Shown: positions 3-18,707 of the stretch, in pieces
How the letters are laid out: every line of letters starts with the position of its first letter
Position numbering within the stretch: the first letter of the stretch is position 1
Origin: Alphaproteobacteria bacterium
GTDB lineage: Bacteria; Pseudomonadota; Alphaproteobacteria; Caulobacterales; Maricaulaceae
DNA length: 45,229 bases
NCBI GenBank assembly: GCA_016124665.1
Contig: WGNH01000039.1
Span: 1 to 45,229, forward strand
Reading direction: 5' to 3'
Notes under the pieces: model-generated
The model's input: the letters and a program-made list of their open reading frames with translations, nothing else
Database searches by the model: none
What the model was told of the DNA's origin: nothing
Position numbers and translations under genes: made by a program

Positions 3-494
3 GCGCATCTTATCAGCCAATTACCACGCGCCCCGCGCCGTACCATTCGCGTTGTTTTGTTTGGCGCAGAGGAGGTCGGACTGCTGGGGGCCTTTGCCTA
101 TGCGCAACAGAATGCCGATGAGATTGGAAATATCGTTCTGGCATCGGAGTCCGATTTCGGGGCCGGCCGTGTCTGGTCGCTGACGTCCGGCACCAGCGAG
201 GAAGGAACAGCTTTCCTTGATGAAGCCCAGCGGATCATTGCCCCGCTGGGGATAATTCGAGGTGACCGAGCCAATCGTGGAGGCGGACCCGATATCATTC
301 CGCTCGCCCTGCAGGGTGTGCCGGTCTTCCGCCTGACCCAGGACGGGACGGATTACTTTGATCTCCATCACACGCCGGATGACACCTTCGACAAGATCGA
401 CCCGGATGAGCTCGCCCAGAACGTCGCGGCATGGGCCGCCATCGTCTGGCTGGCTGCCGACTCAAATGTCGAATTCCGAACGCAGGATGAATAG
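3..494 (+). CDS. M28 family metallopeptidase, C-terminal part
   Basis: Partial gene running in from the left edge. The open frame reads from base 3 without a start, so only the C-terminal 163 residues or so are present. The stretch VVLFGAEEVGLLGA matches the M28 (aminopeptidase Y/Q, glutamate carboxypeptidase-like) block, in which the Glu-Glu pair supplies the catalytic base and a zinc ligand. A later HHTPDDTFDKID stretch matches the C-terminal zinc-ligand His region of the family. The enzyme is a di-zinc exopeptidase, usually secreted or periplasmic in Gram-negatives; the N-terminus that would show a signal peptide is missing. A strong terminator follows at 538, so it is probably the last gene of its transcript. 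The substrate cannot be told. Confidence 0.9.
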   Translation, partial: AHLISQLPRAPRRTIRVVLFGAEEVGLLGAFAYAQQNADEIGNIVLASESDFGAGRVWSLTSGTSEEGTAFLDEAQRIIAPLGIIRGDRANRGGGPDIIPLALQGVPVFRLTQDGTDYFDLHHTPDDTFDKIDPDELAQNVAAWAAIVWLAADSNVEFRTQDE

Positions 495-537
495 ACCTGC
501 CCCCTGATCGCCCGTATTGGGCTTAACCGACACTTAA

Positions 538-559
538 CCGCCCCAATCGGGGCGGTTTT
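538..559 (+). terminator. Rho-independent terminator after the M28 peptidase gene
   Basis: The arms CCGCCCC (538-544) and GGGGCGG (549-555) pair perfectly around the loop AATC and are followed by TTTTGTCTTTT. It sits 44 bases after the peptidase stop and 120 bases before wecB, so it separates the two transcription units. Confidence 0.85.
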
Positions 560-677
560 GTCTTTTCTGTCCCGGAATCGCCTTTTAGCGGCGGTTATTA
601 CTCCCTGATTCAAGGCGACTTTCCCGGTGCGAGGGATTTCCGGCGGGCTTGCCCGCCAATCGCACTGGGGGGCGATT

Positions 678-1802
678 ATGGGAATCGCGATTGTTGCAGG
701 AACTCGGCCCGAGATATTGAAGCTCGCGCCGGTTTTCCGGAGTTTGAAGGACGCAGCACTGGATCCGGTCTGGATCGCCACGGGACAACACGGCGATCTG
801 GCAGAACAGGCGCTGGACGCCGTCGATATCCGGCCGGATGTAACACTGAGCGGTGGATGGGATCCCTGCTCGCTGACAAATCTGTCTGCCGGCCTGCTGG
901 ATCAGCTGGGCAGCTGGGTTACCGACCATCAGCCAAGGGCTGTGATCGTCCAGGGTGATACCGCCAGCGCCTGGTCCGGCGCGCTCGCAGCGCATCTGAA
1001 CAAGGTGCCGGTGGGCCATGTCGAGGCGGGACTTCGAAGTGGCGACACCAATAACCCGTTTCCCGAAGAGAGCTTTCGGCGGCTGATTGCGCCGATTGCC
1101 GATTTTCATTTCGCACCGACGCGTCTGGCCGAGAAAAACCTGCGGCTGGACGGTGTGCGCCCCCGGCAAATCTGGGTCACCGGAAATACCATCATCGACA
1201 CCGTTCTCGATATGGCGGACCGCGTCCGCGCACCGGCGATCCTTGATCAGGTGAAACCGGGCGAGCGGATCATTCTGTTGACCGCACACCGTCGCGAAAG
1301 CTGGGGCGAGGGTATCGTTGGCATTTGCCGGGCCGCGCTGGAACTTGTTCATCGGCATCCGGACATCCGCATCATTTTTCCGGCCCACTCCAATCCGCGG
1401 GTCCGGGAAACAGTCGAGGACATGCTGGGCGCAACCGATCGCATTCATGTGATCGCGCCGCTCGCCTATCCCGAATTCATTGCGGTGCTGAAAGCCAGCC
1501 ATCTCGTCCTGTCAGATTCCGGCGGTGTTCAGGAAGAAGCCCCCAGCTTTGATGTGCCGGTGCTGGTCCTCCGCGAGACGACCGAACGCCAGGAGGCGAT
1601 CGACGCCGGCGTTGCCAAACTGGTGGGCACGGATCCGGCGGTCATAGTGCGCGAAGCTTCGCTTCTGCTCACCCGGCCATCCGCTCACGGCAGAATGGCA
1701 AGCCGCAAAAACCCGTTTGGCGACGGCAAGGCCAGTCAGCGCATCACCGATATTCTGGCGAGCAAGCTGCTCGCAGGCAAAGAATTGCGGCAGGCGAGCT
1801 GA
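678..1802 (+). CDS. wecB: UDP-N-acetylglucosamine 2-epimerase (non-hydrolysing)
   Basis: Interconverts UDP-GlcNAc and UDP-ManNAc in the cytoplasm. About 374 residues, the usual WecB length. Visible family motifs are GTRPE near residues 8-12, HVEAGLR near 114, the TAHRRE block near 202 and SDSGGVQEEAP near 280, the last three lining the nucleotide and active site. The ATG at 678 is chosen because it follows a purine-rich GGGGGGCG and begins directly with the first beta strand; an in-frame ATG at 627 would add an unlikely 17-residue extension. The stop overlaps the next start in TGATG, so it is translationally coupled to the nfrB-like gene. In E. coli the NfrB glycan depends on WecB encoded elsewhere; here the epimerase is in the operon, which points to UDP-ManNAc as the donor (inference). 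Confidence 0.93.
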   Translation: MGIAIVAGTRPEILKLAPVFRSLKDAALDPVWIATGQHGDLAEQALDAVDIRPDVTLSGGWDPCSLTNLSAGLLDQLGSWVTDHQPRAVIVQGDTASAWSGALAAHLNKVPVGHVEAGLRSGDTNNPFPEESFRRLIAPIADFHFAPTRLAEKNLRLDGVRPRQIWVTGNTIIDTVLDMADRVRAPAILDQVKPGERIILLTAHRRESWGEGIVGICRAALELVHRHPDIRIIFPAHSNPRVRETVEDMLGATDRIHVIAPLAYPEFIAVLKASHLVLSDSGGVQEEAPSFDVPVLVLRETTERQEAIDAGVAKLVGTDPAVIVREASLLLTRPSAHGRMASRKNPFGDGKASQRITDILASKLLAGKELRQAS

Positions 1803-4153
1803 TGGAAGGGATTGATCCCGCCATGGCGCAAATCGCCTCAGCCGATGCGGGCCTTGCGGCATGGGGTGAAACCGTGCTCGCCAGCCTACTTTCGGGCGAG
1901 GCTATCCGGATTTACTGGACGATATTGAGCGGGCTGACGGTTTATGCCGCCATCGCCATCTTTATCTCATCGGTCGATGATACATTTCTGGACCTCTATT
2001 ATTGGGTCTTGACGGCACAGCGGATTGCAACGCGGCCCTTCCGCTACGTGCCCTCCATGAAGCAGCTCCATGAAATGGAGCAGAAAAAACTCGCTGTCAT
2101 GGTGCCAGCCTGGCACGAAGCCGATGTCATTGGCCGCATGCTGGTCAATACGCTCAAGACGATGGATTACCGCAATTACGAGATTTTTGTCGGCGTCTAT
2201 CCCAACGATCAGGAAACCATCGACGAGGTCAATCGCATCGTCCGCCAGAATGACGGCATCAATATCGCTTTTGTCGGTCACAACGGCCCGACCTGTAAGG
2301 CGGACAATCTCAACTGGATGATAGCCGGGATCGTCAAGCGCGAAGAAGAGCTTGGTGAGCGCTTTGACGGCATTCTGATGCAGGACTCGGAAGACGTTAT
2401 TCACCCCATGTCTTTCAAGGTGATCAACGCCTATCTCGACCGCGCCGATATGCTGCAATTACCGGTCTTGTCCATGCCGCGTAAGTGGACGGCGCTGACG
2501 GCCTGTCACTATATGGATGAGTTTGCGGAATGGCATGGCAAGGATCTGATTGCCCGGTCCCATATGACCGACCTTGTCCCTTCAGCCGGTGTCGCCACGG
2601 CCTTCAGCCGGGATGCAATCGAACTCCTGCGCAAGGAGCGGCATAATCAGCCCTTCAATGTGGATTCGCTGACAGAGGATTATGATATCGGCCACCGCTT
2701 TTACGAAGCCGGTCTGAAATCTATGTTCGTACGTTACTGGGCCCGGATGCCCTATGCCACACGCAAGGCCTGGTTTGCCAATCGGGACGTCCACAAGCAC
2801 CGGCGCGAACTGGTGTGTACACGGGAGTTTTTCCCGGACGGTGTGAAAGTATCCGTACGCCAGAAATCCCGCTGGATGCTGGGCATATCCTATCTCGGCT
2901 GGAAGCAGTTGGGCTGGATCGGCCCGGCCTCGCACCGCTATTTCCTCTACCGTGACAGGAAAGCCATCTGGACGGCTCCGACGGGCATGTTGGCCTATGC
3001 GATCCTGTTGCAATGGGCGCTGTACTGGCTGATCTCGACAGTCTTTCCGCAAATAGGGGGGCTGCCGCCGCTGATCGATCCCGATAGCTGGATCTGGTCC
3101 ATCGTGCTGATCAATTTCGTCTTCCTGGTGAACCGCGTTGTCCACCGCCTCATTTTTACCGGCGCTGCCCACGGGCTGAAATACGCGATCCTCGCTCCCG
3201 TTCGAATGGTGTGGGGCAATTATATCGGATATCTTGCCTCCATGCGCGCGGTCCGCCGCTATCTGTGGCACGTCATCAGCGGCAACCGTATCACATGGGA
3301 CAAGACCGCCCATGCCTATCCGTCCATGGCGGAGCTGGGGCAGGGCGAAGGCGGCCGCCTGGGCGAAGCCTTGATCTATTGGGGCGCCATAGATGAGCGT
3401 GGTCTGCAACGCGCCCTTGCCCTGCAGGAGGACGAATACCGCCCGCTGGGCCTGCTCCTGCTTGATCTGGGTGAGATCAATGATGATCAGCTGGCGGATG
3501 CCGTTGCCGAACATAAAGGTCTGGAACGCATTTCGCTCGACCCGCTCGCGACAAAGCCGGAAGTCCTGAAGCATTTCCCGCATGATCTTGCCGCAAAGTA
3601 TGGCGTTTTCCCAATGACGCGGGATGGCCGCAGCTTCCAGATTGCGGCGGGTGAACCGCTCAGCGAAACCCAGCTGACCGACCTCAGGCATCGGTTGGGA
3701 CGCAGCTTGAAGGTCTGCATTGCGCCGTTAAGCGATATCAGCTTCGGCATCCGTTTCGGCTATCAGCCGGAAATTCTGGAGGCAGACCGCCGGGCCGCCC
3801 GTGTGCTCAATCGCCTGTCGATTCTGGATGAGGGGCAGGTGGCGGCCGTCTGGCGCAGCCTGCGCAAGGACTGGGTCCGGCTCGGTGATCATCTGGTCCG
3901 GCGCGGCGCACTTAGCCATATGCAATTGTTGACCGAACAAAAAGGTGTCGATGCGGCTGACGAGTACGCGCTCGGCACAGCGCTGATCCGGAAACGTATC
4001 ATCAAGAAAACCGATTTCGACGCGGCACTGGCCGCCCAACCCAAAGTTCCGCTAGGGTTTGTCCAGCGCGCGAGGGCGCTGGGTTATCTGACTGATGTGG
4101 AATGGACCGAAATCCAGGAGGCTCATGCCGACCTGGTTATGGAGGATGCCTGA
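1802..4153 (+). CDS. nfrB: NfrB-like inner-membrane glycosyltransferase with C-terminal MshEN domain
   Basis: 783 residues, close to E. coli NfrB (phage N4 adsorption protein B). A membrane segment lies near residues 36-60. The GT2 domain starts around residue 95 (MVPAWHEADVIG) and shows an acidic QDSED near 194, TEDYDIG near 290 and a QKSRW motif near 355, the signature set of a processive GT2 polymerase. Two further hydrophobic segments lie near 395-415 and 430-450. A C-terminal MshEN (GSPII_E N-terminal) domain begins near 519, with two 24-residue units of RLGxxL...G...L..AL..Q type separated by five residues, the known c-di-GMP-binding layout. A second, degraded pair of such units follows near 693-746. 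It starts in the TGATG overlap with wecB and ends in another with nfrA. Probable role: c-di-GMP-controlled synthesis of a ManNAc-type surface glycan (domains seen, product inferred). Confidence 0.9.
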   Translation: MEGIDPAMAQIASADAGLAAWGETVLASLLSGEAIRIYWTILSGLTVYAAIAIFISSVDDTFLDLYYWVLTAQRIATRPFRYVPSMKQLHEMEQKKLAVMVPAWHEADVIGRMLVNTLKTMDYRNYEIFVGVYPNDQETIDEVNRIVRQNDGINIAFVGHNGPTCKADNLNWMIAGIVKREEELGERFDGILMQDSEDVIHPMSFKVINAYLDRADMLQLPVLSMPRKWTALTACHYMDEFAEWHGKDLIARSHMTDLVPSAGVATAFSRDAIELLRKERHNQPFNVDSLTEDYDIGHRFYEAGLKSMFVRYWARMPYATRKAWFANRDVHKHRRELVCTREFFPDGVKVSVRQKSRWMLGISYLGWKQLGWIGPASHRYFLYRDRKAIWTAPTGMLAYAILLQWALYWLISTVFPQIGGLPPLIDPDSWIWSIVLINFVFLVNRVVHRLIFTGAAHGLKYAILAPVRMVWGNYIGYLASMRAVRRYLWHVISGNRITWDKTAHAYPSMAELGQGEGGRLGEALIYWGAIDERGLQRALALQEDEYRPLGLLLLDLGEINDDQLADAVAEHKGLERISLDPLATKPEVLKHFPHDLAAKYGVFPMTRDGRSFQIAAGEPLSETQLTDLRHRLGRSLKVCIAPLSDISFGIRFGYQPEILEADRRAARVLNRLSILDEGQVAAVWRSLRKDWVRLGDHLVRRGALSHMQLLTEQKGVDAADEYALGTALIRKRIIKKTDFDAALAAQPKVPLGFVQRARALGYLTDVEWTEIQEAHADLVMEDA

Positions 4154-5901
4154 TGTCCCGTTATTATAATCGCGGCTGGATCACCCCGGCGAAAGACAAT
4201 TTGCGGCCCCGGCTCTTGCTGGCGTCCACCGCTTCGCTGACGGCATTGAGTTTTGCGGTCTCGGCGGGCGCGGATGAAGATCCGCGGACACTTGATCAAC
4301 GCCGTGCAGATGCACAGGCGCTTCTCGTCCAGGCGGGATGTGAGACTGCGCAGCCAACGCTTAATACGGTTGCAGCATCAGCGCAGCATGCGCTCGACCA
4401 CATCGCGGCCGCCGAATGTGCCGTGGAAACAGGCGCTGCGGCGCAAGCCTCCGAAGCCTTCTGGCAGGCTGTCATTTTCCGGCATCAACTGGATGAAGCG
4501 CAGCGCATCTATGTCTTCCGGAGCCTTGGCTACCAGGCGGAAGCGGCTGGCGAATTTACCCGCTCGGCAATCGGCTGGAGCGAGGCTGCCAGTATTACAA
4601 ATGACCCATTCGACGAATTGATGGCGGCGCGGGCAGCGCGTCTCGATGAGCGGCCGCAATCCGGCGCGGCACGCCTGCAACAAATTGATATAACAGGACT
4701 TTCGGGGCCTGATCTGGCGCTCTACTATGAAGAGCGGGCTTTGGTCATGGCTGATACACAACCGGATGTGGCGGCCATGTATCTTGCCCGCGCCATTGAA
4801 ATCGAGGACCTCCCCTATCGCCGTTTCCAGCGGGGTCTGTTCCTTCAACAGGCAGGTCAGGAGCGCGCCGCGCTCGCCGAATTCAGCCGGGCGCTGGAAG
4901 GTGATCCACGCAATATCGACATTCTCCTTTCGACTGCCTACGCCGCTCATCGTGTGGACGACCCGGACCTGGCCGCCAACCTGTTCCAGCGCGTATTGAT
5001 CATTGATCCGGAGCGCAGCGCTGTTCGCGAGGACCTGGGCTATGCCCTGATGCAGGCGGACCGTGAGGAAGAGGCCGCCGCCGCTTTCCGCGCGGCCATT
5101 CTTGATCCAACAGTGCGCGTGAACGAGACCGCTCAGGAGCGCTATCAACGCATTTACCGTCTACGCCGGCAGGTCGAACAGCTTGAGCGCACGACCTATG
5201 GCTTTGCCTTTGCCTCTTACCGGGATGGCTCGGCACCTGTAGCCATCAATCTGCCCGAAACGGGCCCGAACGAGACGCAATTTGGTGGCGAGTTTGGCTG
5301 GCGGCCGGACGCCTTCAACACTCAGAATACGGGTCTGACGCTGTTCGGACGCGGTTACGTCTCGGCGGACCCCGGCACCATAACGTTGAATGATGAAACG
5401 CTCCAGATGGGTGTCGGTGCCCGCTGGAAGCCCCTGCCCGGGCATGATTTCTATCTGGCGGGCGAGCGCATGATTGCTGGCGGTGATCAGGCTCGGGATG
5501 CTTGGTTACTTCGTGCCAGTTATGGATGGGCGGACGGACTCGACTGGAATCCCAACGAGGCGGACTGGAATTACACAACGGTCTTCGCCGATCTGGCCTA
5601 TATTCCGGACAATCCGGAATTCCTGTCCGCTTATGCTTCCGTCCGTCAGGGACGGCGCTTCCGGACGGGCGAACGCTGGACCTTCACGCCCTATGTAACC
5701 GGCGTGGCGCAATGGTCAGACGACACCTTCCAGACGCGCGAGCGGCTTGAAGTGGGGCCGGGCGTGGTGTTCTCGCACTGGTTTGACGAAAGCGAAGCTT
5801 CGGCTCCGGCGCAGCGTCTGGATCTGGAGATGGAATATCGCTTCGGCGTCGGCGACACAGATGATCAGGCGTTTATCGCCCGTGCTGTCTGGCACTTCTG
5901 A
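4153..5901 (+). CDS. nfrA: NfrA-like outer-membrane TPR/beta-barrel protein
   Basis: 582 residues from the ATG at 4153, which overlaps the nfrB stop as TGATG; an upstream in-frame ATG at 4102 lies inside nfrB and is rejected. The N-terminus has a basic stretch, then a hydrophobic segment ending ...AVSAGADE, consistent with a signal peptide. The middle part holds tetratricopeptide-like helices, for example near residues 215-320 with ALAEFSRALEGDP and LANLFQRVLIIDPE-type repeats. The last 230 or so residues alternate like beta strands and end in ...ARAVWHF, a C-terminal Phe typical of outer-membrane barrels, and correspond to the NfrA C-terminal domain. It is much shorter than E. coli NfrA (about 990 residues), mainly in the TPR part. 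Likely exports or displays the glycan made by NfrB at the cell surface and could serve as a phage receptor. Confidence 0.82.
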   Translation: MSRYYNRGWITPAKDNLRPRLLLASTASLTALSFAVSAGADEDPRTLDQRRADAQALLVQAGCETAQPTLNTVAASAQHALDHIAAAECAVETGAAAQASEAFWQAVIFRHQLDEAQRIYVFRSLGYQAEAAGEFTRSAIGWSEAASITNDPFDELMAARAARLDERPQSGAARLQQIDITGLSGPDLALYYEERALVMADTQPDVAAMYLARAIEIEDLPYRRFQRGLFLQQAGQERAALAEFSRALEGDPRNIDILLSTAYAAHRVDDPDLAANLFQRVLIIDPERSAVREDLGYALMQADREEEAAAAFRAAILDPTVRVNETAQERYQRIYRLRRQVEQLERTTYGFAFASYRDGSAPVAINLPETGPNETQFGGEFGWRPDAFNTQNTGLTLFGRGYVSADPGTITLNDETLQMGVGARWKPLPGHDFYLAGERMIAGGDQARDAWLLRASYGWADGLDWNPNEADWNYTTVFADLAYIPDNPEFLSAYASVRQGRRFRTGERWTFTPYVTGVAQWSDDTFQTRERLEVGPGVVFSHWFDESEASAPAQRLDLEMEYRFGVGDTDDQAFIARAVWHF

Positions 5902-5914
5902 CAGGTCCGCTGCT

Positions 5915-6718
5915 TCAGGAAAGGGTGTCAGCGGGCAGGACCTGCCAGCTCATGGCGACCCCAAGCTGACTGAAGGCCTGTGTCCAGTAGGTTCTGAGGG
6001 CACCATTCTGTTCTGATTCCCAGCCAGGCCGTTCGATCAGATGGATTTCCAGTACAACACCAGCCAGCGCCATGCCGTATTCTTCGCGGATGGCTTGAAC
6101 TGTATCGGCAACCGGCGGCAGACGGTCAAACACCGCGCCGCGAGACCGGCCATAGACCGAGAAAATCGCTGAATTCTGGAGCATGTCTGAAACGAGGATA
6201 ATCCGCCGTCCGGGTACGGTTTGTGCCATGGACCGCTCCTGCGCAAGCTCGGCCAGCGCTTCCAGTATAGGACTTTGCGGTGCATCCTTGGGCACTACAA
6301 GGTCTTCGAGTGCCTGCTGAAGCGGAGCATCAAACAGGGATTCATAGCGGGCCTGGATGCGGTCCGGATTACGGTAGAGTGGATTGACCTGATCGCCGCT
6401 GCCTGGATTGCACAGCGAGAAGTTGGTATCGTCCAGCCGGCCGCTCTCGTCGAGTTCGAACAGGGACAGGCGTTCACCCACGGCCAGCGTATCGCGCTGG
6501 GTCAGGATAATGCGCTCGATGGCGGCCGCTTGCTGCTGTGAATAGAGGTCTGTCTTGTCGATAATGACAACGCGGTGAGGCGGAACAATGCCCGTGATGC
6601 AGAGCGTTTCAGCATCGTATTCCGCTGGCCGCAGCGTCAGCGCAAAATAGCTGACCGCTGCCACCACGCCGGCCACGATTAACAGGTTGAATATGCCAAG
6701 CAGATCGCGTCCGGACAT
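5915..6718 (-). CDS. Membrane-anchored VWA-like protein of unknown function
   Basis: 267 residues, not recognised as a named family. An N-terminal membrane anchor (about residues 9-28) is followed by a soluble domain with strand-like VVIIDKTD (near residue 50), where Asp and Thr sit as in a partial MIDAS site, and later RRIILVSDML, resembling the second metal-binding strand of von Willebrand A folds. The canonical DxSxS is not intact, so metal binding is uncertain. ATG at 6718 is taken; a GTG three bases upstream is possible. It lies 20 bases downstream of the partner membrane-protein gene on the same strand, with a GGGGGT stretch before the start, so the two form an operon. It converges on nfrA with only 13 bases between stops. 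The topology suggests the VWA-like domain faces the periplasm, but this is a guess. Confidence 0.75.
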   Translation of the reverse strand: MSGRDLLGIFNLLIVAGVVAAVSYFALTLRPAEYDAETLCITGIVPPHRVVIIDKTDLYSQQQAAAIERIILTQRDTLAVGERLSLFELDESGRLDDTNFSLCNPGSGDQVNPLYRNPDRIQARYESLFDAPLQQALEDLVVPKDAPQSPILEALAELAQERSMAQTVPGRRIILVSDMLQNSAIFSVYGRSRGAVFDRLPPVADTVQAIREEYGMALAGVVLEIHLIERPGWESEQNGALRTYWTQAFSQLGVAMSWQVLPADTLS

Positions 6719-6738
6719 CACTTACCCCCAAGGCGGGA

Positions 6739-15075: not shown

Positions 15076-17208
15076 TCAAGACTTTACGGCGACCTCCATG
15101 CGTTGCAGGAGATTCAATGCGCTTTCCGCGATCACGGTTCCGGGCGGGAAGACCGCTGCGGCTCCCATCTGACGCAAGACGGCTTCATCGTCCGGCGGAA
15201 TAACCCCGCCAACGATAACCAGCATGTCCTCACGTCCGCGATCACGCAAGGCATTCCGTAAAGCTGGCAAGAGGGTAAGGTGGCCAGCCGCCAGTGATGA
15301 CATCGCCGCCGCGTGGACATTCTCCTCGTCTGCCAACTCGGCCGCCTCTTCCGGTGTTTGAAAGAGGGGGCCGATCACCACCTCCCAGCCCATATCTGCG
15401 AAAGCGGATGCCACAACTTTCTGTCCGCGATCATGGCCATCTTGGCCGAGTTTTGCGATCAGGATTTTTGGCTTACGGCCGGTGCGGTTTTCGAAGGCAC
15501 GGGCGGCCTTGACCGCTGCAGCAACCTTGGCATCAGTTCCGGCTTCGTCGGCATACACCCCTTTGATAACGCGGATTTCAGCTTCATGGCGATTGAAGAC
15601 CTGCTCCATCGCAGCTGACATTTCACCAACAGTGGCTTTTGCCCGGGCAGCGTCCACACATAGCGCAAGCAGGTTTCCGCCTTCGCGGGCGGCACGGGTC
15701 AGTGCCAGAAGCGCGGCCTCAACAGCACTGTCTTCGCGTTCCTCCCGTATGCGCTTCAGTTTCTCTTCCTGTTCCTTGCGGACCTGGTAATTGTCCACTT
15801 TCAGTACCGGCACGTCCTCGTCTTCCTCGAGGATGAATTTATTGATGCCGACAATTGTCTGTTGTCCACTATCGATGCGAGCCTGGGTCCGGGCAGCGGC
15901 TTCCTCGATCCGCAGCTTTGGGGTGCCTTCAGCAATGGCTTTTGCCATTCCACCAAGTGCGTCGATTTCGTGGATGTGATCGAGCGCTCGAGCTGCAAGG
16001 TCCTGTGTCAGGCGCTCGACATAATGGGATCCGCCCCATGGATCGATGGCATCGATCAGGCGGCTTTCCTCGGCGAGAACGAGCTGGGTGTTGCGCGCAA
16101 TGCGGGCAGAGAAATCCGTTGGTAGCGCCAAGGCTTCATCCAGTGAGTTGGTATGAAGCGACTGTGTGTGGCCGTCGATGGCCGCAATGGCTTCGAGTGC
16201 CGTACGTCCGACATTGTTGAATACATCCTGCGCGGTCAGGGACCAGCCTGAAGTCTGGCAATGAGTCCTCAGGCAGATGGATTTGTCCGATTTGGGCTCG
16301 AAGCGTTGTTGCACCAGCCCCGCCCAGAGCAAGCGCGCGGCCCGCAGTTTGGCAATTTCCATAAAGACATTCATGCCAATGCCGAAGAAGAAGGAGAGAC
16401 GTGGCGCGAACATGTCGACATCCAGCCCCGCCTCGATGCCGGTTCTGATATATTCGATGCCGTCTGCAATCGTATAGGCGAGTTCGATATCGGCCGGTGC
16501 TCCTGCTTCCTGCATGTGATAGCCGGAGATCGAAATGGAGTTGAATCGCGGCATGTTTTCAGCCGTATAGGCGAAAATGTCCGAGATGATCCGCATCGAA
16601 GGTTGGGGCGGATAAATATAGGTGTTGCGCACCATGAACTCTTTCAGAATATCATTCTGGATGGTGCCCGACAGTTGTTCCGGTTTGACGCCCTGCTCTT
16701 CGGCGGCTGCGATATACAGGGCCATAACAGGCAGGACGGCCCCGTTCATCGTCATGGAAACGCTCATTTCATCGAGCGGAATTCCGTCGAACAATTCCCG
16801 CATGTCATAAATGGAATCGATGGCCACGCCGGCCATGCCGACATCCCCCGCGACACGCGGACGATCGCTGTCATATCCACGATGCGTCGCCAGATCGAAA
16901 GCAACCGACAGCCCCTTCTGACCCGCAGCCAGATTACGGCGATAGAAAGCATTTGAGTCTCTGGCCGTTGAAAACCCGGCATACTGGCGGATCGTCCAAG
17001 GACGCTGCAGGAACATGGTCGGGTAGGGGCCGCGAATAAACGGTGCGGCACCCGGTAGGGTCTTGCTCAGACGTTTATCAACATCTTCTGCGCCATAATC
17101 AGATTTTATTTCAATACCTTCCGGGGCTTTCCAGCGAGTTTGCGCAGCGCCTTTCCCGGACAGATTTGCCTTGAATTCCTGTTTCGAGAAATCGACGCGA
17201 TGGCTCAT
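15076..17208 (-). CDS. mutB: Methylmalonyl-CoA mutase, large (catalytic) subunit
   Basis: 710 residues, the normal length of the alpha subunit. Isomerises (R)-methylmalonyl-CoA and succinyl-CoA using adenosylcobalamin, the last step of propionyl-CoA catabolism. The N-terminal TIM barrel carries the family stretch around [20 protein letters not shown]. The C-terminal B12 domain has [13 protein letters not shown] with the cobalt-ligand His (about H592) in DGHDRG, and a later [10 protein letters not shown]. It overlaps the small-subunit stop (ATGA), so the subunits are co-translated. No propionyl-CoA carboxylase, epimerase or MeaB chaperone gene is in the window. The symbol follows common bacterial usage, which varies between genomes. 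Confidence 0.97.
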
Positions 17209-18557
17209 GAACTCGCTCCGTTTTGCGCGGCATCCTCGAGCCGGATGGATGGAAACAGCAGCACGCTGGCGGGTGGTGTCCGGCCTTCCTTATATTTCAT
17301 CTCGCGCAGCTCCGGTGCAGCATACCGGTTGATACCGAACAGGACGCGTTCGCCGCGCTCATACATGGCAAGCAAAGCTGTCCTTGCCGTTTCAACCTGG
17401 GAGACGAATTCGCTGCCGGCCGTGATCGCGGAATAACCGCCATCGGCTTCAATCGACTGGAACATTCTCCAAGCGTGTTCCCCTAGTTGAGCTGTCAGAT
17501 GCTCATGCAGATAGGAACCACGCGCCGGATCATCCACCAGGCCAGAATGTGATTCTTCTTGCAGCAGAATGTGTAGATTTCTGGCAGCCCTGCGCGCCAG
17601 ACGATCGGGCCGGCCGAGCGCATGGGTCGCCGGCAGGACAGTGAGGCTGGTCACGCCGGAACAGGCCGCGGCAAATCCGGCGGCGGACGTTCTGATCATA
17701 TTGGTCCATGGCGCCTTGCGTGTCATCATCCGGCCAGATGTCACCGCACGAATTTTCGGCGCGCTGGAGGCGGCGTCATATGCTGATAGAATATTCTGGA
17801 GCACCAGATAGCCTGCCCGGATTTTGGAAAGCGACAGGTGAATATCGGCGTCGACGGCAAAAAGGACTTCGATCTGTGCGACCGCCTGGGTGGCAGAAAG
17901 GCCTGCCTCGATGAGCCTGCCGAAGGCTTCAGCAAACCCTGCAGCTGCAAAGGCAAGCTCCTGCGCTTCGGTCCCCCCGGTTTCGTGGATGACGCGGGCG
18001 TCAATGCAGGCGATGCAAAAACCAGGGTGGTTTTTGGCCAGGTCGGCCAGGCGGTCATCAGCGGCATCGAGACCCAGTCCGGCCCGGTTTGCGCCCGCCT
18101 TTTTCATCCAGCCTGCAAACAGGCCGGGGTCGAAATCATGTCCGGGTTCCAGAAACACGGGCGCAATCGAAACGTCCACGCCATCAAGCGCTCGACCCAG
18201 GTCATCTTGATCGGAAATGGCCACGCCAAAAACGCCCTGCGGGTCAATATGCAGCCCGATTTCAGAAACACCGCCCATCAGGTCTGCCAAGATTGCCGTA
18301 TTTGCCTCTGACGGGCTGGATTCGGTGAAAAACTGCCGGATCTGCCAGGGCCGAAACCCATCAGTACGAGGCGCAGCAGCGGCACCGAGACGATCCGCCG
18401 CGAAGAAAACAGGCCCGCGTTCAATGCCATCCGGCGTGCGCCGCACCAACGTCGAAACGAAGTCTTCACCGCGTAAAGCCGCGTCTGCGAGCGCACGCCA
18501 GTGATCGGCGCTGTGTGAGGGTAATCCGTCAATCAGAGTGTGGAGCGTTTCGGTCAT
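17205..18557 (-). CDS. mutA: Methylmalonyl-CoA mutase, small subunit
   Basis: About 450 residues from the ATG at 18557, preceded by AGGAA; the longer frame to 18632 would add a poor 25-residue extension. It aligns in style with the N-terminal barrel half of the beta subunit, with FSWRT-region relatives such as RPWQIRQF and [25 protein letters not shown]. It lacks the degenerate B12 domain found in longer (about 620-residue) beta subunits and ends soon after [13 protein letters not shown]. It forms the heterodimer with the large subunit and does not bind the cofactor itself. First gene of the minus-strand mutase operon; 150 bases separate it from the divergent DUF2793 gene. Confidence 0.93.
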
Positions 18558-18707
18558 CAATGAATTCCTGCTGGCCGCTTTCTTGAGAAGAAAAAGGCGC
18601 GGGCAAGACCAGAGGTCAAGCCGCGAGGGCATGGAGAGCGCCTGACGTTATCCGCTCCGTCCCGGTCTGCGTCTAGCCTTGAGGTCCGAATATGGAGCAT
18701 CGCAAGC

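What the first reader, a model, noticed from the sequence alone, without database searches (positions are those of the whole stretch)
678..5901. Self-contained wecB–nfrB–nfrA operon: an N4-receptor-type glycan system outside the enterobacteria
Three genes overlap as TGATG at both joints: a UDP-GlcNAc 2-epimerase, a GT2/MshEN polymerase like NfrB, and a TPR/beta-barrel protein like NfrA. In E. coli, NfrA–NfrB with WecB makes a surface glycan that phage N4 uses as receptor, under c-di-GMP control. There wecB is in another locus; here it is in the operon, which independently supports a ManNAc-containing product. The small periplasmic partner YbcH seems absent and NfrA is much shorter, suggesting a minimal form of the system. 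The system is known; its form and setting here may be undescribed.
Basis: partly seen in the sequence, partly recalled or inferred. Interest (0 to 1): 0.75.

Follow-up and report, generated by a model that had tools for sequence, protein, structure and literature searches.

The report
Three-gene Nfr surface-sugar operon in Hyphobacterium
A bacterium related to Hyphobacterium and Caulobacter carries a compact three-gene version of the machine that in E. coli makes the sugar coat used by phage N4; the machine and its link to the sugar-making gene were already published, but its synthase seems to hold a second, apparently unreported sensor-like module for the signal molecule c-di-GMP.

Summary
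wecB (678-1802), nfrB (1802-4153) and nfrA (4153-5901) overlap as TGATG and each passes a curated family cut-off. The genome is a Hyphobacterium (Maricaulaceae) relative. In 71 of 80 named relatives wecB is within the fetched stretch. Particular here: no BcsB-like gene (present in 64 of 80 stretches, none of the 12 Maricaulaceae/Caulobacteraceae-type ones) and no YbcH found; the operon's wecB is the genome's only match; a congener lost wecB, nfrB and most of nfrA together and has no wecB. NfrA is short only in its TPR part; its predicted barrel has 12 strands that map onto E. coli's. Followed further, most NfrB proteins, E. coli's included, carry a second MshEN-type c-di-GMP motif pair in the C-terminal tail: 81 of 84 tails match a profile made from the first pair, 0 of 1680 shuffles; 11 of 95 NfrB lack the tail. 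The passages I saw do not mention it; in this species it is the weaker site. A known kind of operon, one testable new point.

The parts
536..557 (+). intrinsic-terminator-like hairpin (9 pairs, then TTGTCTTTTC) between the upstream M28 peptidase and wecB
   Evidence: longest of 3 hits in 400-6100, where shuffles gave a mean of 4.9, so a pattern match only; sequence
678..1802 (+). wecB, non-hydrolysing UDP-GlcNAc 2-epimerase, 374 aa
   Evidence: TIGR00236 407.6 bits; aligned to solved epimerases over residues 3-361; only wecB match in the genome
1802..4153 (+). nfrB, membrane GT2 synthase with C-terminal MshEN, 783 aa
2384..2398 (+). NfrB residues 195-199 DSEDV (acidic GT2 motif)
   Evidence: 95 of 95 aligned NfrB carry D(S/A/C)ED(V/I/L)
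2672..2680 (+). NfrB residues 291-293 TED
   Evidence: 95 of 95
2861..2875 (+). NfrB residues 354-358 QxxRW
   Evidence: 95 of 95
3356..3514 (+). first MshEN c-di-GMP motif pair, NfrB residues 519-571
   Evidence: NF053729 42.9 bits on this piece, cut-off 38; motif I scores 11 of 11, motif II 8 of 11
3518..3742 (+). PF05157 MshEN match, NfrB residues 573-647
3878..4039 (+). second MshEN-like motif pair, NfrB residues 693-746
   Evidence: NF053729 25.8 bits here, below the 38-bit cut-off
4153..5901 (+). nfrA, signal-type N terminus (by eye), TPR superhelix and outer-membrane barrel, 582 aa
   Evidence: NfrA_C 92.9 bits; model pLDDT 88.6
4282..5187 (+). NfrA helical TPR part, residues 44-345
5194..5895 (+). 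NfrA predicted 12-stranded barrel, residues 348-581

Best explanation
The operon is a self-contained exopolysaccharide factory of the Nfr kind. WecB turns UDP-GlcNAc into UDP-ManNAc. NfrB, a cellulose-synthase-like GT2 in the inner membrane, polymerises a ManNAc-containing chain and pushes it across; c-di-GMP binding to its C-terminal MshEN part (one clear module and a second, weaker one) switches it on. NfrA, a periplasmic TPR superhelix joined to a 12-stranded outer-membrane barrel, takes the chain out. This lineage seems to need no BcsB-like or YbcH-like periplasmic partner. Shown by sequence: gene order, families, active-site motifs, a single wecB match, no partner found, joint loss in a congener. 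Inferred: substrate, polymer, direction of transport, c-di-GMP activation. Any phage-receptor role in this host has no evidence here.
For: Family matches over curated cut-offs; GT2 motifs in 95 of 95 NfrB; the NfrB model resembles BcsA and hyaluronan synthases, with a separate match to MshE with c-di-GMP, 137 columns, target TM 0.81; the NfrA model is TPR plus 12 strands, with BcsC among its matches (550 columns, TM 0.29-0.31). The own genome has one wecB match, in this operon; its single PF00984 protein scores best against UDP-glucose dehydrogenase TuaD and far below the UDP-ManNAc dehydrogenase cut-offs. Of 60 related genomes 8 have a full NfrA_C match and all 8 have a wecB match (7 over the cut-off, one cut by a contig end); 16 of the other 52 have a match, 10 over the cut-off (related genomes, not independent). 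Congener G002 lost the unit and has no wecB match. wecB lies on the same strand in 71 of 80 named stretches.
Against: No biochemistry. A WecG/TagA-superfamily glycosyltransferase elsewhere in the genome could also use UDP-ManNAc, although 7 of 8 genus genomes have one, including G002, which has no wecB. In two Glycocaulis-group genomes (G020, G034) wecB lies on another contig than nfr, and 16 of 52 related genomes have a wecB match without nfrA. MshEN motif II of site 1 ends in H, not Q, so c-di-GMP binding in this species is less sure than in E. coli. No GGDEF domain on this contig.
Confidence: 0.78

Rival explanations
1. NfrB here polymerises UDP-GlcNAc or another sugar and wecB serves a different pathway.
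For: No direct proof of an NfrB substrate was in the passages I saw; a WecG/TagA-superfamily enzyme exists in the genome.
Against: wecB is on the same strand near nfrB in 71 of 80 named relatives in three arrangements (directly upstream 12, upstream at a distance 53, downstream 6); it is lost together with nfrB and most of nfrA in G002 while the WecG-type enzyme stays; E. coli genetics in PMC8669469 and PMC8669472.
Confidence: 0.12
2. The system is not under c-di-GMP control in this lineage and the MshEN part is a decaying relic.
For: Sister genera have lost it: Glycocaulis-group NfrB is 585-613 aa without recognisable motifs in the alignment, and the one scanned (L052) has no MshEN-type match; Maricaulis salignorans scores 18.0 bits. 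Window site 1 motif II lacks Q and site 2 is below cut-off.
Against: Window site 1 is above the curated cut-off (42.9 bits against 38) and its motif I is perfect.
Confidence: 0.2
3. NfrA is a BcsC-type exporter and the operon a cellulose-like system.
For: Same TPR-barrel layout; BcsC 9b8a aligned over 550 columns.
Against: NfrA_C matched at 92.9 bits and no BcsC family up to E 0.1; no BcsB in 0 of 5 genus genomes; 12 strands predicted against 16 in BcsC (recalled).
Confidence: 0.03

Closest known systems
E. coli nfrBA-ybcH with wecB (NGR, the phage N4 receptor glycan)
   Same: NfrB GT2 plus MshEN, NfrA TPR-barrel, WecB
   Different: wecB is inside the operon and is the only match in the genome; no YbcH found; NfrA TPR part about half as long; order wecB-nfrB-nfrA; NF008411 cut-off not reached
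wecB-linked nfr clusters of Pseudomonas, Burkholderia, Achromobacter (PMC8669469, PMC8669472; many of L059-L126 here)
   Same: wecB beside nfrB and nfrA
   Different: 64 of 80 named stretches hold a BcsB-like ORF, often between wecB and nfrB; none of the 12 Maricaulaceae/Caulobacteraceae-type stretches L047-L058 does, nor L072, L108, L114, L124
Cellulose synthase BcsABC
   Same: c-di-GMP-gated GT2 synthase, TPR-barrel exporter
   Different: PilZ instead of MshEN and need for BcsB (recalled), no epimerase, different families
MshE / PilB / PilF ATPases
   Same: MshEN c-di-GMP module
   Different: fused to ATPases, not to a glycosyltransferase

Membership tests
WecB (non-hydrolysing UDP-GlcNAc 2-epimerase) | TIGR00236 over cut-off, full length | tested here: met
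   407.6 bits, residues 1-361 of 374; aligned with solved epimerases
NfrB | GT2 with DxD-type, TED, QxxRW motifs | tested here: met
NfrB | curated glycosyl transferase family model NF012033 | tested here: met
   660.7 bits against 537
NfrB | E. coli NfrB equivalog NF008411 cut-off | tested here: not met
   564.9 against 1170; aligned 38-748: homologous, not called equivalent by that model
NfrB | MshEN c-di-GMP module | tested here: met
   PF05157 42.6 bits, NF053729 42.9 bits on the piece
NfrB | binds c-di-GMP | not testable with these tools
   motif II ends in H, not Q
NfrA | NfrA_C domain PF13283 | tested here: met
   92.9 bits against 25
NfrA | signal, TPR, outer-membrane barrel | tested here: met
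   TPR and barrel in the model, pLDDT 88.6; the signal peptide only by eye, in the stretch the model leaves at low confidence
NfrA | 16-stranded barrel (as stated for E. coli in PMC8669472) | tested here: not met
   12 strands in the model; E. coli's barrel aligns strand by strand to these 12 with like loops, so the published count may itself need checking
Nfr system (E. coli type) | YbcH partner | tested here: not met
   (sequence search only, no positive control)
Nfr system (E. coli type) | makes a surface glycan used by N4-like phages | not testable with these tools
   none
Bcs cellulose system | BcsB | tested here: not met
   0 of 5 genus genomes; the E. coli control rings

The most novel reading that the evidence does not exclude
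NfrB synthases, including that of E. coli K-12, carry two c-di-GMP-sensing MshEN modules, not one: the C-terminal tail is a second four-helix MshEN bundle. The phage N4 receptor glycan would then be gated by two c-di-GMP sites, and lineages tune the gate by letting one, the other or both decay (Hyphobacterium keeps both imperfectly, Maricaulis salignorans has a ruined one, Glycocaulis none).
Probability: 0.45. Interest if true: 0.6.

Novelty: new member of a known kind. Interest (0 to 1): 0.4.

Why it matters
In the papers seen the Nfr glycan is postulated, not solved. A genome whose only wecB match lies in the operon, with no recognised UDP-ManNAc dehydrogenase, and a congener with a natural loss of the unit is a clean setting in which to isolate the polymer. 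The second MshEN module, if it binds, changes the model of how the N4 receptor is switched in E. coli itself and offers a simple mutant test; sister genera that lost the module suggest that the synthase can be uncoupled from c-di-GMP.

Tried and rejected
Rejected: NfrA as BcsC-type by family; a smaller barrel (same barrel, shorter TPR part); a linked diguanylate cyclase (four GGDEF places, none on this contig); wecB placed by chance. In a note I took the 291-aa ORF after nfrA in Glycocaulis (L027:9818-10693) for a second barrel; the barrel query does not match it and its match is to the TPR part. G001, a congener without nfr, lacks the flanking gene too, so no empty site could be read there. 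first gave a hand-set motif view; the profile test is the stronger one.

ORF ends come from a simple caller, and three 'upstream at a distance' cases (L078, L079, L105) have over-long nfrB ORFs. Rows dropped: 99 NfrB ORFs became 95 distinct. The first tree also left out four Maricaulaceae rows by my mistake; it was redone with 64 of 95 rows after removing those 93% or more identical. Structure alignments held 39 of 60 NfrA and 45 of 76 NfrB within set lengths. Three of 84 tails (L040, L050, L101) do not match the site-1 profile and 11 of 95 NfrB have tails under 60 aa. Foldseek gave no aligned ranges, so the second MshEN fold rests on helix pattern and sequence. No Pfam MshEN match was found in 4 of 4 tails scanned. 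Supplements and figures of the papers could not be read, so the gene maps of PMC8669469 Fig. 7 were not seen.

Full report
What is there. A 9-pair hairpin with a T-rich tail at 536-557 separates them from the M28 peptidase upstream (the scan as a whole found 3 terminator-like sites where shuffles gave a mean of 4.9, so this is a pattern only; no promoter-like site was found upstream), and the next gene downstream is convergent (5915-6721, minus). Curated models name them: wecB TIGR00236 407.6 bits, NF012033 660.7 bits, MshEN 42.6 bits, NfrA_C 92.9 bits, all over cut-off. The E. coli NfrB equivalog model aligns over residues 38-748 but stays below its cut-off. WecB aligns with solved epimerases over residues 3-361.

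Whose genome. A named relative with 95% NfrB identity is Hyphobacterium indicum (L047). In a tree of the GT part (64 of 95 rows) the window lies with 6 other Maricaulaceae-type rows (bootstrap/SH-aLRT 100/100), inside a 15-row alphaproteobacterial group with Caulobacteraceae (100/96, rooted on E. coli for the test). An earlier tree with four of these rows missing gave the same grouping.

Is it new? Mostly not. PMC8669469 (abstract, passages including section 11, section 15 read) surveyed 406 species beyond E. coli, mentions alphaproteobacteria, and states that every species with NfrB and no other WecB has wecB directly beside nfrB, using this as evidence for UDP-ManNAc. PMC8669472 (abstract, passages, sections 5 and 9 read) describes nfrA, nfrB and wecB clustered with a BcsB homologue in Achromobacter xylosoxidans. 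Four text searches listed no paper that, by title and start of abstract, treats the alphaproteobacterial form; listings only, plus one passage of PMC13001222.

How it compares. In 80 named stretches wecB lies directly upstream of nfrB in 12, upstream at a distance in 53, downstream in 6, and was not found on the same strand in 9. A BcsB-like ORF (the query L067 protein matches PF03170) is in 64 of 80; it is missing in L047-L058 (titles Hyphobacterium, Maricaulis, Glycocaulis, Brevundimonas, Caulobacter, Caulobacteraceae and two unplaced alphaproteobacteria), in L072, L108, L114, L124, and in the window; of the 20 unnamed loci L026-L045 only L034 and L037 have one. No BcsB in 0 of 5 genus genomes. 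YbcH was labelled in 6 of 80 and not found here. So the three-gene form is a lineage-wide reduced form. NfrA_C occurs in 13 of 385 sampled genomes of the class, own included, and in 9 of 60 relatives, own included, one of them a remnant.

The unit is lost as one. The own genome has one wecB match. Of 60 related genomes, 8 have a full NfrA_C match and all 8 have a wecB match (7 over the cut-off, one cut by a contig end); of the other 52, 16 have a match, 10 over the cut-off. In 5 congeners fetched, the operon has the same flanking genes (L026, L028, L029, L031, L032; L028 ends inside wecB). In G002 the same flanks enclose only 54 codons alignable to the end of nfrA (window residues 529-582) plus a small pair with a TumE-type toxin and a helix-turn-helix protein, and the genome has no wecB match. 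The WecG/TagA-superfamily enzyme, another possible user of UDP-ManNAc, is in 7 of 8 genus genomes, G002 included. The own genome's one UDPG_MGDP_dh protein scores best against UDP-glucose dehydrogenase TuaD, 538.2 bits (cut-off 700), against 192 and 182.5 bits for two UDP-ManNAc dehydrogenase models (cut-offs 750, 459).

Proteins. The NfrA model (pLDDT 88.6, 39-row alignment) is a TPR superhelix followed by 12 strands. E. coli NfrA aligns strand by strand with similar loops, and the barrel is 229-264 aa in 38 of 40 sequences (two longer); the difference in total length is in the TPR part. PMC8669472 states 16 strands for E. coli; my model and alignment suggest 12, unresolved, since E. coli's own protein was not modelled. 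The NfrB model (pLDDT 85.7, 45 rows) resembles BcsA and hyaluronan synthases and, separately, MshE with c-di-GMP. The three GT2 motifs are kept in 95 of 95 NfrB.

A second MshEN. Beyond the known MshEN (residues 519-571 plus PF05157), residues 693-746 repeat the double 24-residue motif published in PMC5013675 (abstract and passages seen). Of 95 NfrB, 84 have a tail of 60 aa or more; in the alignment the last glutamine of motif II is in 83 of 84 rows with a residue there, while the last glutamine of motif I is in 0 of 78. The best single 24-residue motif reaches 9 or more of 11 points in 82 of 84 tails and in 0.07% of shuffles. A profile built only from the first site finds the second in 81 of 84 tails at E below 1e-6 (not in L040, L050, L101), in 0 of 1680 shuffled tails and 0 of 95 GT domains at 1e-3. 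A Pseudomonas tail alone matches the PilF ATPase chain 6f8l at 1e-8, and the c-di-GMP-bound domain structures only weakly (0.24 to 0.96). Pfam MshEN was not matched by 4 of 4 tails. NF053729 (cut-off 38) gives site 1 / site 2: E. coli 52.1 / 46.6; Brevundimonas L053 40.1 / 51.8; L035 38.3 / 48.5; Pseudomonas L067 57.1 / 31.7; window 42.9 / 25.8; L040 25.0 (piece cut a few residues short) / 28.8; Maricaulis L050 18.0 over its whole C terminus; Glycocaulis L052 no match; the E. coli, L035 and window tail scores are sums of two stretches. In the model helices 694-700, 706-715, 722-730, 736-745 repeat the pattern 520-526, 532-545, 549-555, 561-571. Searches inside the two Nfr papers for 'second MshEN', 'two MshEN' and 'tandem' found no mention of a second module ('tandem' occurs once in PMC8669469, for the two motifs of one MshEN); PMC8669472 speaks of a domain of unknown function in the C terminus, whose limits I did not see. 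The purified fragment 414-745 used for the published affinity covers both sites. In this species the second site is the weaker; whether it binds anywhere is open.

Verdict. Observation confirmed; function as read; novelty mostly pre-empted. The most valuable outcome is the doubled MshEN-type module, testable in E. coli K-12.

Noticed in passing
L033:8400-9400 (G002, same genus): Operon missing: after the M28 peptidase only 54 codons alignable to the end of nfrA remain, followed by a TumE-type toxin and a helix-turn-helix protein; no wecB match in that genome.
   Followed up: yes
L027, L030, L052 (Glycocaulis group) and L050 (Maricaulis salignorans): NfrB has lost (585-613 aa, no recognisable motifs) or ruined (18.0 bits) its c-di-GMP module, so sister genera seem uncoupled from c-di-GMP.
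   Followed up: partly
L027:9818-10693 and L030:9839-10693: A protein similar to NfrA outside its barrel (TPR part) follows nfrA in the Glycocaulis group; a possible separate periplasmic scaffold.
   Followed up: partly
E. coli K-12 NfrA (L046:983-3955, minus): Its barrel aligns to a 12-strand model although PMC8669472 says 16 strands.
   Followed up: partly
L043:9320-12514 and L044:4873-6096: NfrA_C proteins without an nfrB labelled in the fetched stretch.
   Followed up: no
window 15076-18632, minus: Methylmalonyl-CoA mutase and, next to it, a protein like its small subunit (below cut-off).
   Followed up: no
G000 contigs C10 and C28: Two further MshEN matches in the genome besides NfrB.
   Followed up: no
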